A stretch of DNA of 64,000 bases, taken from assembly GCA_951812585.1 (NCBI GenBank), contig OX638318.1, positions 1,020,819-1,084,818 of the forward strand. Reading direction: 5' to 3'. A program made the translations under genes and the position numbers. This document shows, in pieces, positions 37,745-45,162 of the stretch. Numbering within the stretch: the stretch's first letter is position 1; each line of letters opens with the position of its first letter. The stretch comes from Rhodothermales bacterium (GTDB taxonomy: Bacteria > Bacteroidota > Rhodothermia > Rhodothermales > Bin80). Under the pieces are notes generated by a model, which ran no database searches, was not told the origin of the DNA, and saw only the letters and a program-made list of their open reading frames with translations.

Positions 37745-39996
37745 CCACTGTCGCCTATGTAGCGCTCCATAAACTCCCAGATGCGAAGCAGCCTGTCGAT
37801 GCGCTGTTTGGGGTTACCGCTCCGCGACAGGTCATGGCTTGCGTTGGGATAGCGTACATATTCCACGGGGCGCTCCAGCGCCTTCAGGCTCTTGTACAGC
37901 ACTTCGCTCTGTATTACGCCGGTGCGCAGATCGTTGTCAGCATGTATGATCAGCAGCGGCGTGCGGATTTGGTCTACCCAAGTCTGCGGCGAGTTTTCCC
38001 GGAGCACATCCGGCACCTCCCAGGGATATCCCCCGAAGTGATTGGGAACCAGCCGCCACGCGCGCCCCTCCCCAAAAAAGGTCGCCAGGTCGTAGACGCC
38101 GCGCTGCGCCACAGCGGCCTGGAATCGATGATCCTGTGTGACGATATAGGCGGTGAGGTAGCCCGCGTACGAGCCGCCGGTTACAACTTGCCTGTTGGCA
38201 TCCACCCATCTATGTCGACGGGCTACTTCGGTAGCGGCCGCCAGCACATCCCCGCCCGGGCCATCTCCCCAATTCTGATAGTTGGCCGCCTTGAAATCAC
38301 GCCCGTAGCCGCCTGAGCCGCGCGGATTGCTGTAGACGATGCCGTACCCTTTGGAAGCCAAATACTGAAACTCGTGCCACATCGTCGCTTCGCCGGGCCC
38401 CCACATGGAAGCGGGACCGCCATGGATGGCCACAAGAAGCGGGTAGGTTCTATTCTGCTCCTGAAATGCAGGCGGCATCACCCAGTACTGCACACGCAGC
38501 GTGTCGCGCTGCACGTATCGCGTTGCCGGCAGGCTAAGGCGTTTGTTGTGCAGCCATGACTCGTTGTGCTCGCTCAGGCGCCGCTGCCCCTGAAAGTCCA
38601 TGGTGGACGAGTAAAGCTCATAGGGGTTGAGCACGCCCGTGCGCACGAGGTATGCAGAGGCCTGTGTCAGGTCATAGCTTCGAATACCGTGCTCCAGGCT
38701 GGTCATGCGCTCCACGCGCAATCCGCGGCGCACCAGCTCCCCGCGGAAGTACGAATCGCGTGCAGGGGTAGTGGCTTGTACCAGGCTGTCTGCGGCCGTA
38801 GTGTCCGGAGTGGGCACTGCAGGCTTGCCCTCATTGACCATGACCCTGTAGAGCGGAAAGCCACCTTCCGACGGCGCAGTGAAGAACAGAAACCATGCAT
38901 CATGCGACCATTGCACATTACTTACGCTCCGGTCAAAATCCAGGGTGACCATCTCGGGCGCCGAGCGGCCATCCAGCGCAAAGATGCCAAGTTCAGTCTG
39001 CGCATAGCCCGGGTCGTCCAGGTCGCGCGCCAGAAATGCAATGTAGTTGCCATCGGGTGACACCAGGGGCGACGACAGCCTGTACTTGCTGATGTCCAGA
39101 AGCCGCTTGAGCCGACGGTCGTCAATATCGATGAGGAACAGGTCCCTGTCGCGCTCCCGGTCGGGATGCGACGTGTCTTGGGGATAGCCGCTAAGTACCA
39201 GTTGCCTGCTGTCGGGCAGCCACGTAGCATCGCTGTACGAATAGAATCCGCGCGTAATCATCTTGACCTCTACATCTTCGGCGGCGACCTCTGCTACGAA
39301 GTAGTGATTGTAGTCTCCTTGGGGCTTAAGCCCCCGCTCGCCTTGCAGGTTCAAGCGTGTAAACACGCGCGGGTTGGCGTCCGCGGCGTTTTGTTGCAGC
39401 CACGCCCGGACCGATGCTAGCGACGCATCGGGATCCGGCTCCGCGGCATCGGCATCTCCACGCCGCCGCATAGGCCGTTCATCTTCCCAGCCTGGTTCAT
39501 CGCCGGTGGCTTTCGCGATTTCGTCCTCCGTCAGCGAGGCCGCGAACAGAATGCGCTGTCCATCGGGCGACCATTGCGGCTGCTTGGCCCCGTGGTCAAA
39601 GTCGGTAAGTTGCCGCGCTTCGCCGCCGAACACAGAGATTTCAAAGAGTTGCGGCACGTCCTTTACGGGTCTGACAAACACGATCCGGTCGCTTTCCGGG
39701 TGCCATGATGGCGCACTTGCTCCTGCGTCGCTGAAGGTCAGCTGCCGCGGTGCTTCCCGGCGCGATATTGGCACCACCCATATCTGGGACTGGTAGCGGT
39801 AGTCGTCGGCATCACCATCGACGATGCTGCGCACGGTGTAGGCTACGAAGCGCCCATCGGGGGACGCGGTGACGCCGCCCAATTGCTGAATCTTAAGCAG
39901 ATCAGTTGCCAGGACCGGTTCCGTCCCTGACTGAGAAAAGGCCGGCGCGCCAACAATCAGGCAGAGCACCCAGCACACGCAGTTCCTTATGAGCAT
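37741..39996 (-). CDS. S9-family prolyl oligopeptidase-type peptidase (secreted)
   Basis: A 751-residue serine peptidase of the dipeptidyl/acylaminoacyl-peptidase type. Signal peptide LCLIVGAPAFSQ; an N-terminal 7-bladed propeller (TolB-like repeats such as TASPDGRFVAYT, QPQWSPDGQRILFAAS, LVSPDGNYIAFLA); a C-terminal alpha/beta-hydrolase domain with nucleophile in GGSYAGY, Asp in HADNDLRTG and His in NASHDLSR. The ATG at 39996 is chosen because the signal peptide begins there; upstream in-frame sequence is not conserved-looking. Its stop overlaps the CPBP start. Likely peptide scavenging or protein turnover in the periplasm. Confidence 0.92.
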   Translation of the reverse strand: MLIRNCVCWVLCLIVGAPAFSQSGTEPVLATDLLKIQQLGGVTASPDGRFVAYTVRSIVDGDADDYRYQSQIWVVPISRREAPRQLTFSDAGASAPSWHPESDRIVFVRPVKDVPQLFEISVFGGEARQLTDFDHGAKQPQWSPDGQRILFAASLTEDEIAKATGDEPGWEDERPMRRRGDADAAEPDPDASLASVRAWLQQNAADANPRVFTRLNLQGERGLKPQGDYNHYFVAEVAAEDVEVKMITRGFYSYSDATWLPDSRQLVLSGYPQDTSHPDRERDRDLFLIDIDDRRLKRLLDISKYRLSSPLVSPDGNYIAFLARDLDDPGYAQTELGIFALDGRSAPEMVTLDFDRSVSNVQWSHDAWFLFFTAPSEGGFPLYRVMVNEGKPAVPTPDTTAADSLVQATTPARDSYFRGELVRRGLRVERMTSLEHGIRSYDLTQASAYLVRTGVLNPYELYSSTMDFQGQRRLSEHNESWLHNKRLSLPATRYVQRDTLRVQYWVMPPAFQEQNRTYPLLVAIHGGPASMWGPGEATMWHEFQYLASKGYGIVYSNPRGSGGYGRDFKAANYQNWGDGPGGDVLAAATEVARRHRWVDANRQVVTGGSYAGYLTAYIVTQDHRFQAAVAQRGVYDLATFFGEGRAWRLVPNHFGGYPWEVPDVLRENSPQTWVDQIRTPLLIIHADNDLRTGVIQSEVLYKSLKALERPVEYVRYPNASHDLSRSGNPKQRIDRLLRIWEFMERYIGDSG

Positions 39997-40208
39997 CGTA
40001 TCGCGATGATTATCCAAATCAGAGCTGTTTGTTGTACCACTGAGCATCAATATAGGCCCGCCGATTATGAACCTGCGCTGTACGGAGCTATTGGGCTTTG
40101 TGTTTACGACGACTTGCCACGGGCCTGTGGTGCAAGCGCGGGTCAAACGTCCAAGCGCGGACAGCGCCCTGTACACTCGCTGCCTTTAGCACGGATCTCC
40201 CATACGCT

Positions 40209-42641
40209 TCAACCCGATGGCAATACCGGTGGACTCCGCCAAGGCCTGCCGGAATGATTTCGGGCAGCCCCGTCGGACCGGCTCACGTCCACTACAACGA
40301 CGCCAATCCTTGCCCGAGCTTCTGGATCAAGAGCGCTGACGAGTCTCACCTTCAACTCGTCAGCGCTCTTAGGCTTACGCCCGCGGGGCGGCCCCGTCTT
40401 CGTGTACTGCTGACCGAACCACAAGACCAGGTATACGCCATAACCTGCGGCTTCTGGTGCCCGCGTGTACTTCGTCGCAAGTTGTTCGTTCGCTGCCCGC
40501 CAGAGTTTCCGGTGCGTGTTCTTCTTGATCTCCACCGGTATAGCTATATCCGCGCCGAACGCCACGCGAATGTCTGCTCTCTTTTCGTCCGCATAATACC
40601 CTTCCTTTTGCGCATGGATGCCATGACGCTTGAGCATCAGGTCCAAGTCTGACAGCAGCGCATCACGGCACTCGTTTTCGTGAAGTGGCGCCCAGCCCTC
40701 CCCATTGGACTGCCAGTACTGCCGCCAATCATTGGTCGAACTATTGCGGATGCGCTGCGCGAGTTGTCTCAAGGCATCGATAAGGAGAGCATGTAGGTCC
40801 GCAGCACTAGACGGAGGCCCGTCGCGAAGCGTCTCCTGGATCTGCTTGAGCGTGGGCACCGCATGCATGTCTCTGCGACATCTCTTGGCTTGCGACAGGA
40901 GGGCGCACTCCAAGCGTACCTTCCGCGATTCCAAGGCTGGATCGCGAGCCAGCGATTCCAGCGCGACACGCGCCTCATCGTTCGTACGACGGGCGAGCGC
41001 TTTGACCCACGATTCCATTAGGGGTTCGAAGTGATTTTCAGCCACCTCGGCATCACTAAGAAATCCGGCGCGCAGCTTCCATTTGGGCGGCTGTATTCGT
41101 GCACCGAGTACACGGATGAGCCTTGCCATATCTTCAGCCTTCCACTCCGAATAGTCTGGTCTGAACTTCTGTACCTCGCTGAAGACTTTCAGGCACCTGA
41201 CCACTTGCCAAATACGCTGTTCGCCTCCGCTCGCCAGATAGTCCACCAGTGCGGAAAGGCACGATTCCATGGCCACATACAGTCCTGTGCACAGCCAGTG
41301 AGCCCGTTGCGCTACATCCATACCCTTGCGCTGGAGCCGTCTTGTCACCAGATCACGGAGACGCCTGGTTGACATGCCGCCTTTGCAGAGTGCAGCCGCA
41401 AGCGTCAGGCGCAAGCTGTCAACCTGCGACGTCGTGCACCGTGACGGAAATGCGGTGAACATCCGGCCCACCGCCAGCGGTCTGACAGGGTCGAACTGTG
41501 CCTCGTGCAACATGCCATAAAGAACCTGATCCGGTGGGCTTTTGGCGCGGACACGAGCGTTGTGCACCACGACCACTGCATCTGCCACATCCTGCGGATG
41601 CTTCGCCAAGGCTCGCACGAACCATTCTGGACGCGCATTTTGAACGGCGATCTGTCCACGCACGTACTGCCGGCCGGGTAACGGCGTAAGCAGATAGAAT
41701 CCTAGCGCGCGCCCTCTCGCCTTCTTTCCAAGGCGAGCAAGTGCATCGCCGCCTGTGCGCTCCTCCTCTTCCATTCCTGCGAGAAATGGACGGGCGAAAA
41801 GCGACCACCTGTTGCGCTCATGCAACCTGGCGACCGCAGCCAGATCCGGCAAGTCATCACGATCTAGCAGGCTGCGAAACCCTGAAAGCGCCGCATCTAC
41901 CAGTGCCGTGTCTTTCTCGAGCGCCGAAGCCAGCTGCTTATGCGGATTGCTGCTAGGTGCCAAGCCTGATAGTCCGTCCATGTACGCCGCCGCAAGTTTA
42001 TGGAGCAACCCAGGCGCGCAGGTGCCGGCCTTGAGCGCTTCTATGTTGCTCCTGAGCCCTGCAAGCCACGCCCGTCTGCGTTCTTGGAAAGCAGTCATGC
42101 TCTCAGACAAACGCTTCCGGTCGTCCGCTGCTTTGCGCTTTTCCTGCTCTTCGTCCTTAAGCCGCTTATCGTTCCAACGCTCTAGTTTGGGGCATCCTAG
42201 TACCGCTTGGGCCACTTCGGCGTCCGATAGCGGCCTGCCCCAGCCATCGTCTTCGAAGGTAGACCACCCAGCAAGCTCTTCCGCAATCTTGCTCCGGCTG
42301 CCTGCCAGTGCTACGGCCCGATCAAGACACCAGCGCCGAAATCCCTTCGGGGCCTTTACGCCGATAAACTTGCGACCAATCGTTTGGCGGAGAGGCTTTT
42401 TGCCGATTTCGGACGCCCGCTGTTGAAGGCCGTATTCAACGAGTTTGTACTGAATCTCCCTGTGCGAATCAAGCCACGACCGGATCGCCTCGTCAGACTG
42501 GGCCCAGACGCTGGCATTCTTATCGTGGCCGTGGCCTCCAAGGACCAGTTGCGATGAGACAAGGTCAAATGTTACCAGGTCTAACCACCGGTATAGGTCG
42601 GCAATCTCCTTTCCTTCACCGAATCGCGCGAGTCCGCGCAC
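40209..42641 (-). CDS. Large defence-type protein with C-terminal PD-(D/E)xK-like domain, probably 5'-truncated
   Basis: The frame has 810 codons from a GTG at 42641 and is open back to 42752, without a good start. It is helical and charged throughout, with a coiled-coil-like stretch (residues about 170-215, DEEQEKRKAADDRKR). The C-terminus has a restriction-endonuclease-like core: ENECRDALL, then RADIRV (Asp690) and PVEIKKN (Glu704, Lys706), then GYGVYLVLWFG. From memory this layout resembles the C-terminal part of very large STAND/NACHT-type proteins in defence islands; no search was possible. The usual N-terminal NTPase is missing. Instead a short P-loop frame overlaps upstream in another frame, suggesting a frameshift or deletion fusion. 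Confidence 0.55.
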   Translation of the reverse strand: MRGLARFGEGKEIADLYRWLDLVTFDLVSSQLVLGGHGHDKNASVWAQSDEAIRSWLDSHREIQYKLVEYGLQQRASEIGKKPLRQTIGRKFIGVKAPKGFRRWCLDRAVALAGSRSKIAEELAGWSTFEDDGWGRPLSDAEVAQAVLGCPKLERWNDKRLKDEEQEKRKAADDRKRLSESMTAFQERRRAWLAGLRSNIEALKAGTCAPGLLHKLAAAYMDGLSGLAPSSNPHKQLASALEKDTALVDAALSGFRSLLDRDDLPDLAAVARLHERNRWSLFARPFLAGMEEEERTGGDALARLGKKARGRALGFYLLTPLPGRQYVRGQIAVQNARPEWFVRALAKHPQDVADAVVVVHNARVRAKSPPDQVLYGMLHEAQFDPVRPLAVGRMFTAFPSRCTTSQVDSLRLTLAAALCKGGMSTRRLRDLVTRRLQRKGMDVAQRAHWLCTGLYVAMESCLSALVDYLASGGEQRIWQVVRCLKVFSEVQKFRPDYSEWKAEDMARLIRVLGARIQPPKWKLRAGFLSDAEVAENHFEPLMESWVKALARRTNDEARVALESLARDPALESRKVRLECALLSQAKRCRRDMHAVPTLKQIQETLRDGPPSSAADLHALLIDALRQLAQRIRNSSTNDWRQYWQSNGEGWAPLHENECRDALLSDLDLMLKRHGIHAQKEGYYADEKRADIRVAFGADIAIPVEIKKNTHRKLWRAANEQLATKYTRAPEAAGYGVYLVLWFGQQYTKTGPPRGRKPKSADELKVRLVSALDPEARARIGVVVVDVSRSDGAARNHSGRPWRSPPVLPSG

Positions 42642-43006
42642 CAGAAGCGCCAGGACAAAATCGTCCAGCCTATGGCCGACCAGCTTCGGGAGCAGGGTGG
42701 ATGATTGATCACAAAGCGAGTCCAGCAGGGCCCTGATTTGCGTGTCGCTCGATCAGGGGTGCCGCCGGCGGGAACGACCTCAATCGTTGCCCCCTCGCTG
42801 GATGATCCAAGTGTATTTGCCGTTGGGTCGTCCATTACCACGTAATGGCATCGATGACCCAATGCGTGCAGCGCTCGGCACGCCTGAAGCGCCAGCGTGG
42901 TCTTACCGGTCTGGCGCGGGCCGGTAATTGCAATGATCCGCATGGTGGATCGGCTCTGAACAAGCTCCACCATACGCTGCACCTGCGAACGTTCGTATGC
43001 TTTCAT
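42581..43006 (-). pseudogene. P-loop ATPase N-terminal fragment, out of frame with the large gene downstream
   Basis: About the first 85 residues are a convincing nucleotide-binding start: MRIIAITGPRQTGKTTLALQ (Walker A GPRQTGKT), then HYVVMDDP, as in AAA_14-type ATPases. From about PAGGTPDR the sequence loses coherence (ATRKSGPCWTRF, CSRSWSAIGW). The coherent frame continues in the next register as SSDTQIRALLDSLCDQ, leading into the 810-codon gene. One base change near 42752 would join both. Either a recent single-base frameshift broke one long gene, or a deletion fused an AAA_14 N-terminus to an unrelated C-terminus. No Walker B motif is left. Confidence 0.6.
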
Positions 43007-43012
43007 ACGGAT

Positions 43013-43041
43013 ATAATACTGTATTGAGTAATTGTTGTCAG
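43013..43041 (-). promoter_or_regulatory. sigma70-type promoter giving a probably leaderless transcript
   Basis: Minus strand CTGACA (43041-43036), 17-nt spacer, TATTAT (43018-43013). The predicted start falls at about 43006, exactly the ATG of the P-loop frame, so the transcript would have essentially no 5' leader. The flanking DNA is AT-rich compared with the rest of the window. Confidence 0.55.
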
Positions 43042-43494
43042 ATACGTATCTTTTCGCATGTTAAACTTGCCCGCTCCTGGCTTCGAGCACGGAGTGTGCG
43101 GATCGGGAGCCAGCACTGTGGTCCTCACGGTCCGGCGGTCAGCCAGCGCAGTGACTTGCCTGCGCCTAGTGGAATAATCCTGAACCAGCGGTGCCCTGCC
43201 TTGCACCTATGGGCTTGCAGATGCGAACATTTCTGATAGATACTAAAGTGAGTAAATCTTCTCAAGTAGGTACTATTATTTCTACGATGCCCGTGCATAA
43301 GCGATTCCGTGTGCCGGGTGTGCAGATTCGACGCAGCGACGTTGCCGATCGAATTGGGCCTGATTTTGCGATTCAGCTATTTGCTTGACTTTCATGGCGG
43401 CCTGCACCCCCTTGGGATGCGAAGCCGGCGAGCCCCGGGGATCCGACGCTTAGGGCGTGCGCTCCTCCTTGGATTACGCTCGCGATGCGCAGGC
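43042..43494. other. Intergenic stretch in the decayed defence island
   Basis: About 450 bases without a convincing gene. A plus-strand frame at 43191-43388 (65 codons) has no recognisable features. The part at 43230-43400 is AT-rich, unlike the core genome. The stretch at 43390-43494 may include further decayed sequence of the helicase remnant on the minus strand but I cannot align it. Confidence 0.4.
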
Positions 43495-43740
43495 TGATGG
43501 CCGCTTCGGACCTTGGCGACCAGGTCTATGCCAGGTCTGTTTCAGGCAAGCCCCGCGCCCGGGCCCACTCCCCGTAACGCACGGGGGCTCATACTGGGTC
43601 TTCTGCATCGGATCATGCGTGAGAAAGGCCTTGCACAGCCGCTCAAATGCCGTGCCCTTGATTCGTTCTTTGCTATACCCTGCCGCAGCGGCTTCCTTGC
43701 ACCACTGATTCAGTATTATGTCAAGTTGGCGCGATCCTTG
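43495..43740 (-). pseudogene. Frameshifted N-terminus of a restriction-type predicted helicase
   Basis: On the minus strand three frames give successive pieces of one protein: RQLDIILNQWCKE followed by KGTAFERLCKAFLTHDP (about 43733-43611), then GEWARARGLPETD (about 43580-43540), then GIDLVAKVRSGH (about 43532-43497). This order (GTAFE..., W/LPETD, GIDLVA) is the N-terminal Mrr-like nuclease part of large DEAD/DEAH predicted helicases found in restriction/defence islands. At least two frameshifts, no start codon, and no remaining helicase domain: it is a remnant. Recognition is from memory of the family pattern. Confidence 0.6.
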
Positions 43741-43938
43741 GCGGGGGTATAATGGGCTTCATATCAGACAGGATTCCTGTGGTTGGCAGTTTCTTTGTGG
43801 AAGGGGAGCAAATATCCAGGTAATCTAATCAGGGAAACGTACATCTGTTGATGGCACAGGTTGTTTCTACGGCTGTGCACATTGATCTGCACCCACTGAT
43901 GCAGGCTTGATCCTGGCGGCGGTGGGGGCCTCGCGCAG

Positions 43939-45162
43939 CTACTCGCGTGACCCGTACGGGCGCGTCATGAAGCGCTGGGCCTGGGTGTGGGAACTGCCCC
44001 AGGCCTTCATGTCCAAAACCTGCGCGTAACGCTCGACTGCGCGCGTGCGCTGACCCAAACGGTCGTAGGCCATGCCCTGCTGCAGCCGACCCATCACCTT
44101 GAAATAGGTGTCTTCGTCCGACCGCGCTGAAAGCGCTTCAAGAGACAGCAAGTAGCTCAAGGCAACCGGGTAGTCCCGCGCTACCATGCGGCCACGCGCA
44201 AGAAAGTAAAGTGCCTGCTCTGCCACCGGGGCCGTGTAGCCAGAAGCACCCTGGCGATAGTGCTCCAATATGGATGCAAAAACAGTATCGGAACGGTTCC
44301 ACGCAGCCCAGCGGGCGTAAATGCGCCCTTCCAACGCGTGAAAGAATGAATTGCCTGGATGCCGGGTGCGCAGCAGCGTAGCGTAGCGTACACTCTGGCG
44401 GTAATCGTTCTCGTACAAGTAGTAGATCTGCAACAGGAAATAGATCGCTTCCGTCTGCATGAAGTAACCCTGCGTCGCAGTGCGCCCAATCTGGGCCAGA
44501 CCCAGGTCTCGATCGCCCTTGGGCAAAAACGCGGTGATCGGCCGCACAAATGGATAGCGCTCAGGAATCAGCGCCGCATAGTAGTTGTACAGACCGGGGC
44601 CCAGTACAAAGTCATGGTCTGTAGTGTCCGCACGCGCAACAGCCAGCACATAGTCCATCGCGCGCTTGCCATCGGCGGCCGCGCGGATCCAGTCCCGCCG
44701 GTTCGAACGCAAACGACCCCTGAAACCCAGCGCCATGCCCTTAAAGAACATCGCATCAAAATCGCCTTCGTTCGCCGCTAGCCGGGCGTCACATCGCGCA
44801 ATGACCCGGCCCATTGCTGCGTAAAACGCCTCGTCATGTTGCGTATCGGAAAGATCCATGAGAATCTCCCACCACAGTGTAAGCGCCGAAAGAAAAGGGC
44901 CGATGGGGTGGTCGTCAACTTGGCGGCTGATCGAATCAAAGCGTGCGGCAGCCTCGTCGAACTGCATGTCGTACAGGAGGTCGAGGCCTTCCTTCGCTGT
45001 CTGACGAAGCGCAGGATCCTCCAGAACGCTATCCGTAGGCTGCGCTGAGACAGCAGCAGGGTACGCTGCACTGGCCGCGAGCAGCGCCAAGCACCCTAGA
45101 ATCCTACCGAAAGCGGCGTACCAAATGGTACAAGAGGGCCACGCACAAAATCTTGGCTGCAT
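43939..45162 (-). CDS. TPR-like secreted or periplasmic protein
   Basis: A 407-residue protein with an N-terminal signal (GCLALLAASAAYPAAVSA) and helical repeat content throughout: LLYDMQFDEAAARFDSISRQ, VMGRLQQGMAYDRLGQRTRAVERYAQVL. TPR-type A/G spacing is visible at both ends. The central YAALIPERYPFVRPITAFLPKGDR segment recurs in Bacteroidota hypothetical proteins. No enzymatic motif. The start is uncertain: ATG 45162 overlaps the 3' end of bioY by 59 nt; a longer ATG at 45228 only adds odd sequence. The Bacteroidota context suggests a role in envelope assembly, but this is not shown. Confidence 0.7.
   Translation of the reverse strand: MQPRFCAWPSCTIWYAAFGRILGCLALLAASAAYPAAVSAQPTDSVLEDPALRQTAKEGLDLLYDMQFDEAAARFDSISRQVDDHPIGPFLSALTLWWEILMDLSDTQHDEAFYAAMGRVIARCDARLAANEGDFDAMFFKGMALGFRGRLRSNRRDWIRAAADGKRAMDYVLAVARADTTDHDFVLGPGLYNYYAALIPERYPFVRPITAFLPKGDRDLGLAQIGRTATQGYFMQTEAIYFLLQIYYLYENDYRQSVRYATLLRTRHPGNSFFHALEGRIYARWAAWNRSDTVFASILEHYRQGASGYTAPVAEQALYFLARGRMVARDYPVALSYLLSLEALSARSDEDTYFKVMGRLQQGMAYDRLGQRTRAVERYAQVLDMKAWGSSHTQAQRFMTRPYGSRE

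What the first reader, a model, noticed from the sequence alone, without database searches (positions are those of the whole stretch)
40209..43006. Probable frameshifted or fused large defence NTPase-nuclease
A P-loop start (GPRQTGKT) with its own promoter runs for about 85 residues and then continues, one frame over, into an 810-codon gene ending in a PD-(D/E)xK-like core (D690, E704, K706). Known large defence proteins of this C-terminal type normally carry an N-terminal NACHT-like NTPase. Here either one base is missing or a deletion joined an AAA_14 ATPase start to the nuclease part, a possible new architecture. Most likely candidate in the window for an undescribed defence protein.
Basis: partly seen in the sequence, partly recalled or inferred. 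Interest (0 to 1): 0.6.

Follow-up and report, generated by a model that had tools for sequence, protein, structure and literature searches.

The report
Deleted remnant of two-gene defence operon
The odd frameshifted gene is what is left after about 2.7 kb was deleted from a two-gene operon, an ATPase-nuclease gene followed by a large immune-receptor-like nuclease gene, that is intact in related bacteria and appears in many phyla, mostly in genomes that look sponge-associated.

Summary
The 42581-43006 (-) ORF starts as an AAA_14 ATPase for about 85 codons, then joins, one frame over, the C-terminal 60% (847 codons) of an EruA-like NACHT antiphage protein. Related Rhodothermales genomes carry both genes whole and adjacent: A (about 425 aa, AAA_14-DUF4143) and E (about 1,400 aa, NACHT, variable helical middle, C-terminal PD-(D/E)xK nuclease).

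Against the closest intact operon the window lacks 2,739 bp, including the whole NACHT. The join lies at an 8-base microhomology, and the missing parts occur nowhere else in the genome. So this is neither a one-base error nor a new fusion protein, but a deletion remnant; the nuclease motif survives and the remaining frame shows no decay.

The intact pair is the interesting part. 78 of the 80 best A hits in species genomes have E directly downstream, usually with a 4-base stop/start overlap. A and E diverge together (r = 0.85). A 22-bp palindrome sits just upstream of A in 49 of 79 loci (0.15 expected). EruA is a catalogued antiphage family and A matches candidate PDC-S01. I found no report of the pair or palindrome in the papers searchable here. 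Defence function is inferred, not shown.

The parts
42752..43006 (-). Retained 5' part of gene A: AAA_14 ATPase start with Walker A GPRQTGKT, about 85 native codons
   Evidence: 67-68% identical to residues 3-88 of intact A in G005; aligned
42581..43006 (-). Whole truncated A ORF (141 aa); the last ~56 residues are read out of frame through E sequence
42747..42754 (-). Deletion junction at GATCGAGC microhomology
   Evidence: Closest intact operon has CCCGATCGGGC in A and ACCGATCGAGCG in E, 2,739 bp apart
40209..42752 (-). Retained 3' part of gene E (EruA-like), 847 codons stop to stop, equal to residues ~575-1404 of intact E; NACHT lost
40209..42641 (-).
40419..40679 (-). C-terminal PD-(D/E)xK nuclease-like core; D at 40572-40574, E at 40530-40532, K at 40524-40526
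   Evidence: conserved columns; predicted alpha-beta-beta-beta-alpha-beta core
43013..43041 (-). Sigma70-like promoter CTGACA-17-TATTAT upstream of A
   Evidence: 10 of 12 matches
43022..43030 (-). Half-site TACTCAATA of the palindrome found upstream of gene A in other phyla; left arm degenerate here
39934..43945 (.). Approximate extent of the inserted block: the neighbouring S9 peptidase and TPR-like genes are adjacent in G001, G004 and G005

Best explanation
The feature is the remnant of a two-gene operon, A (AAA_14 ATPase with a DUF4143 PD-(D/E)xK-like end) followed by E (EruA-like: N-terminal NACHT, variable helical middle, C-terminal PD-(D/E)xK nuclease). SHOWN by comparison: the operon sits between two genes that are neighbours in relatives, so it was probably acquired there; one deletion of about 2.74 kb, probably between short direct repeats, then removed the 3' part of A and the 5' part of E and left the pieces out of frame. 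INFERRED for the intact system: E is a STAND-type sensor. Its variable middle detects an invader, the NACHT uses ATP to switch or oligomerise, and the C-terminal nuclease cuts nucleic acid. A is a co-translated partner (second ATPase/nuclease or regulator) whose expression is probably set through the palindrome at its start. In the window A has lost Walker B and its nuclease-like end, and E has lost the NACHT and its own start, so the system is most likely dead; a leftover nuclease activity is possible but unlikely.
For: Every good E match in related genomes that is not cut by a contig end or decayed reaches back to query residue ~1 inside a frame of about 1,370-1,490 aa, with A starting about 2.7-3.0 kb upstream. 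Intact operons were read directly. Junction and microhomology. No other copy of the missing segments in the one-contig 3.2 Mb genome. Empty site in G001, G004, G005. Pairing in 78 of 80 genome-contig loci of many phyla; 45 of 69 with exact 4-base overlap, Mantel r = 0.853, 0 of 2000 permutations. Intact E matches EruA end to end (726 bits); A matches PADLOC PDC-S01 (4e-130). In three close pairs of loci A and the two ends of E are mostly 65-98% identical while the E middle falls to 32-60%.
Against: The remnant frame has no stop or frameshift, and its lineage shows fewer amino-acid changes than the intact sister (50 v 88 or 77), so either the deletion is young or the fragment is still selected. 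Sequencing reads were not available, so an assembly artefact is not excluded. Flanking genes of five intact loci are mostly housekeeping or unknown, not defence genes. Two family copies have lost the nuclease motif (L049, L065). No antiphage test of this A+E pair is known to me.
Confidence: 0.93

Rival explanations
1. A functional minimal form: the NACHT-less E fragment (sensor plus nuclease), translated from an internal start after the short A ORF, still works as a nuclease effector or as a regulator.
For: The 847-codon frame is fully open and conserved, with fewer amino-acid changes than the intact sister lineage; catalytic residues intact; an independent locus (L110, Acidimicrobiaceae MAG) has full A fused in frame to E 609-1398 without the NACHT.
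Against: Only one deletion-derived copy; L110 is a single case and could also be a deletion allele; other shortened copies in the family are broken (L062, L063, L066); the A ORF here lacks Walker B; no clear ribosome-binding site before the GTG (direct reading).
Confidence: 0.06
2. Assembly or binning artefact: the real genome has the whole operon and the assembler collapsed about 2.7 kb.
For: The join lies at a short repeated sequence; reads cannot be inspected here.
Against: One-contig genome; neighbouring frames intact; no loose copy of the missing part elsewhere; a microhomology deletion is an ordinary biological event.
Confidence: 0.05
3. A one-base sequencing error in an otherwise intact fused AAA_14-nuclease gene.
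For: The two frames differ by one base at the join.
Against: About 340 residues of A and about 570 of E are missing relative to every intact relative, and the separate genes are conserved in many phyla.
Confidence: 0.01

Closest known systems
EruA, NACHT domain-containing antiphage protein (NCBIfam NF058535)
   Same: Intact E from relatives aligns over the whole model (17-1400 v 5-1318, 726 bits); the window fragment aligns to 606-1318. One paired E (L162, G204) exceeds the curated cut-off with 1145 bits.
   Different: Rhodothermales E scores below the cut-off of 1000; it is about 1,400 aa and preceded by A, whereas all ten plasmid EruA-like genes examined, including one above the cut-off (L170, 1190 bits), have no AAA_14 partner directly upstream. 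The window copy has no NACHT.
PDC-S01 (PADLOC candidate defence gene; AAA_14-DUF4143)
   Same: Intact A matches PDLC04791 over its full length at 4e-130 to 1e-152.
   Different: PDC-S01 is catalogued as a single gene and its validation is pending (PMC12988326); here A is tied to E.
HyoA, NACHT antiphage protein (NCBIfam NF058534)
   Same: Weaker similarity, mainly to the C-terminal half (76 bits for the window fragment).
   Different: Much lower score than EruA; two distant E-like genes in the phylum (L163, L164) branch apart and have no A.

Membership tests
EruA (NF058535) | Score above the curated cut-off of 1000 bits over the whole protein | tested here: not met
   Window fragment 396 bits; nearest intact E 726 bits. 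Met only by L162 (1145) and the plasmid gene L170 (1190)
EruA (NF058535) | Full-length co-linear match to the model | tested here: not met
   Window covers 606-1318 of 1318 only; intact relatives do cover the whole model
EruA (NF058535) | N-terminal NACHT with Walker A and Walker B | tested here: not met
   Absent in window; present in relatives (GEPGMGKTT, FIDGLDE)
EruA (NF058535) | Antiphage activity | not testable with these tools
   no experiment; the EruA paper is not in the library
PD-(D/E)xK nuclease superfamily | D ... (D/E)xK motif on an alpha-beta-beta-beta-alpha-beta core | tested here: met
   D727, E741, K743 conserved in most relatives; predicted H692-710 E713-716 E728-732 E736-744 H750-764 E772-778. 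No PDB fold match below 1e-3
AAA_14-DUF4143 / PDC-S01 | AAA_14 with Walker A and B plus DUF4143 domain | tested here: not met
   Window keeps only Walker A; intact A has both domains (PF13173, PF13635)
Two-gene A+E operon | A directly followed by E on the same strand, often with 4-base overlap | tested here: met
   In relatives. In the window order and strand are kept but both genes are truncated

The most novel reading that the evidence does not exclude
The intact pair is a distinct two-component, NLR-like immune system, made of a NACHT receptor-nuclease with a rapidly changing sensor and an obligate second ATPase-nuclease partner. It would regulate itself through its own operator palindrome (TATTGAGTA-N4-TACTCAATA) and be shared across phyla living in sponges.
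Probability: 0.45. Interest if true: 0.65.

Novelty: new variant of a known kind. Interest (0 to 1): 0.45.

Why it matters
The window copy itself is an ordinary inactivated defence gene and shows how such systems are lost. The comparison needed to show that exposes a little-noticed arrangement. A very common but uncharacterised candidate defence gene (PDC-S01 type) is locked to an EruA-like NACHT nuclease in bacteria of many phyla, with signs of a fast-changing sensor and of a cis-element carried with the system. That gives PDC-S01 a concrete testable partner, and EruA a second component.

Tried and rejected
Genome-contig scan with the single 847-aa query found nothing; the profile of gene A worked. 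The viral-contig scan with E gave no relative, and phage records gave one weak C-terminal match. EruA/HyoA name searches found no relevant paper; a DUF4143 plus defense search found none. Foldseek of the 847-aa model gave no significant match, only weak helical-repeat proteins. The model of A (pLDDT 66) supports only an AAA+ core. The plain frameshift idea was rejected because hundreds of residues are missing. A defence-island context was looked for and not seen. A promoter motif AAA[A/G][G/A]TAC upstream of A occurs in 10 of 23 family loci (0.3 expected) but appears to be a lineage version of the palindromic region rather than a separate feature. Near-identical copies L098/L099 in MAGs assigned to two phyla (99.7% over 7.9 kb) may be recent transfer or mis-binning; not pursued.

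Full report
Observation. 42581-43006 (-) starts with an AAA_14 P-loop (PF13173, 5.4e-07, residues 23-66). The downstream frame is open for 847 codons, 40209-42752 (-), with the 810-codon ORF beginning at its first GTG. The large frame has no Pfam or PADLOC match. It matches NCBIfam NF058535, antiphage protein EruA, at 3.7e-118, but only to model positions 606-1318 of 1318; HyoA matches more weakly.

What relatives show. In 148 related genomes, 19 hold matches to the 847-aa frame. The good matches that are not cut by a contig end or decayed reach back to query residue ~1 and lie inside frames of about 1,370-1,490 aa. The first 97 residues of the P-loop ORF match the start of 420-450 aa ORFs that lie 2.7-3.0 kb upstream of the same E genes. 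Reading 22 such loci directly shows two intact genes, A then E, on one strand with overlapping ends. A carries AAA_14 and DUF4143 domains and matches PADLOC PDC-S01 over its length. E matches EruA end to end at 726-740 bits in the two best examples, below the family cut-off of 1000.

The junction. Against the closest intact operon (G005, L042; 72% nucleotide identity over the E part, 78% over 168 bp of A) the window joins A codon ~85 to E residue ~575. The intact A reads CCCGATCGGGC and the intact E reads ACCGATCGAGCG. The window reads CCTGATCGAGCG, and the two sites are 2,739 bp apart in L042. The missing A 88-430 and E 1-574 are found nowhere else in the 3.2 Mb single-contig genome. The deletion size uses a relative as proxy, so the true ancestral length may differ somewhat.

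History of the locus. The flanking TPR-like and S9 peptidase genes are next to each other in G001 (same genus), G004 and G005, 57-154 bp apart by their protein matches. The window has about 4 kb there. So the operon was most simply inserted at this site in the window's lineage and later cut by the deletion. The same-genus genome G001 keeps only broken E pieces at another place (L062). Other decayed copies exist in the family (L063, L066).

Is the remnant still used? Its frame has no stop or frameshift. Counting changes against two outgroups, the window lineage has 50 amino-acid changes against 88 or 77 in the intact sister. That excludes long neutral decay but cannot separate a young deletion from retained function. 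The short A ORF keeps Walker A only. No obvious ribosome-binding site precedes the GTG at 42641 (direct reading). I judge it dead with about 0.9 confidence.

Domain anatomy of the intact E. Invariant NACHT motifs lie at the N-terminus (GEPGMGKTT, FIDGLDE). AlphaFold2 of the window's 847 residues (pLDDT 83) gives a long helical stretch followed by an alpha-beta-beta-beta-alpha-beta unit carrying D727, E741 and K743; no PDB fold match reached 0.001. Two family members, L049 and L065, lack the motif. In three pairs of closely related loci (L094/L113, L107/L109, L105/L144), A and the two ends of E are mostly 65-98% identical, while stretches of the middle fall to 32-60%. Two other close pairs (L130/L139, L077/L078) do not show this. 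I read the variable middle as the sensor; this is inference.

Breadth of the pair. A profile of A found at least 583 related stretches in genome contigs; 80 were kept. 78 of the 80 have E directly downstream. The exceptions are L110, where full A is fused in frame to E 609-1398, and L137, where only traces remain. This sample was drawn through A, so it shows that A of this type is nearly always paired, not that every EruA is. Independently, E-based searches found A upstream of nearly all family copies and of E in a distant family of the phylum (G204, L162). Ten EruA-like genes on plasmids have no such A upstream; one, L174, has a different DUF4143 gene downstream. On a tree the paired E form one group (support 83; 99 without L162) and the plasmid ones another (97). 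Across 69 loci A and E distances correlate at 0.853 (0 of 2000 permutations) and 45 have an exact 4-base stop/start overlap.

Hosts. Record titles name at least nine phyla. About 36 of the 80 isolate names carry codes (RHO, CAR, COS, IRC, APA) that fit the sponge species of PMC8163846; that these are that study's genomes, and that most of the others are also sponge symbionts, is my inference. The window's close relatives are named Rhodothermales, so the window is very likely a Rhodothermales genome.

A cis-element. Within 200 bp of the A start, 49 of 79 loci carry TATTGAGTA-N4-TACTCAATA within 4 of 18 mismatches, against 0.15 expected by shuffling, and only 3 sites lie elsewhere in 1.12 Mb. 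In G060 and G029 whole-genome scans gave three sites each within 3 mismatches and none for the control pattern. The two best in each lie just upstream of A-type ATPase genes, one of them a solo AAA_14 ORF of about 415 aa. The window keeps only a half-site (43022-43030), and L042 lacks it. Because the hosts belong to different phyla, the site is probably read by the system itself, most likely by A; this is untested.

Known or new. EruA is a catalogued antiphage family, and PDC-S01 is a very common candidate still awaiting experimental validation (PMC12988326). I found no paper describing the pair in the library available, but the primary EruA report is not held there, so a published partner cannot be excluded. 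I therefore rate the intact system a new variant of a known kind, and the window copy an ordinary deletion remnant of it.

Noticed in passing
49 of 79 genome-contig loci upstream of gene A (e.g. L109, L133, L095); half-site at window 43022-43030: Conserved palindrome TATTGAGTA-N4-TACTCAATA, often extended to ACGCTATTGAGTA...TACTCAATAGCGT, just before the A start codon in many phyla (0.15 loci expected).
   Followed up: partly
G060:C17:26802-26823 and G029:C25:44737-44758: The same palindrome also lies next to solo AAA_14 genes about 16-20 kb from the A+E operon, so the element seems tied to the ATPase gene rather than to E.
   Followed up: partly
L094/L113, L107/L109, L105/L144: Syntenic A+E loci in which the middle of E is 32-60% identical while A and the ends of E stay much closer: a mosaic or hypervariable sensor region.
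   Followed up: partly
L110:7992-11597 (+): Full AAA_14-DUF4143 protein fused in frame to the NACHT-less C-terminal part of E (1202-aa ORF), in an Acidimicrobiaceae MAG.
   Followed up: partly
L049 and L065, C-terminal ends of E: Two family copies of E have lost the PD-(D/E)xK residues while the rest of the gene is intact.
   Followed up: no
L098 and L099: 99.7% identical over 7.9 kb including the operon in MAGs labelled Gemmatimonadota and Gammaproteobacteria: recent transfer or mis-binning.
   Followed up: no
G008, G010, G013 (same family as window): Five to seven diverged matches to E in single genomes, i.e. a paralogous expansion.
   Followed up: partly
window 43007-43938: About 930 bp with no convincing gene between the A start and the next gene, part of the inserted block.
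   Followed up: no
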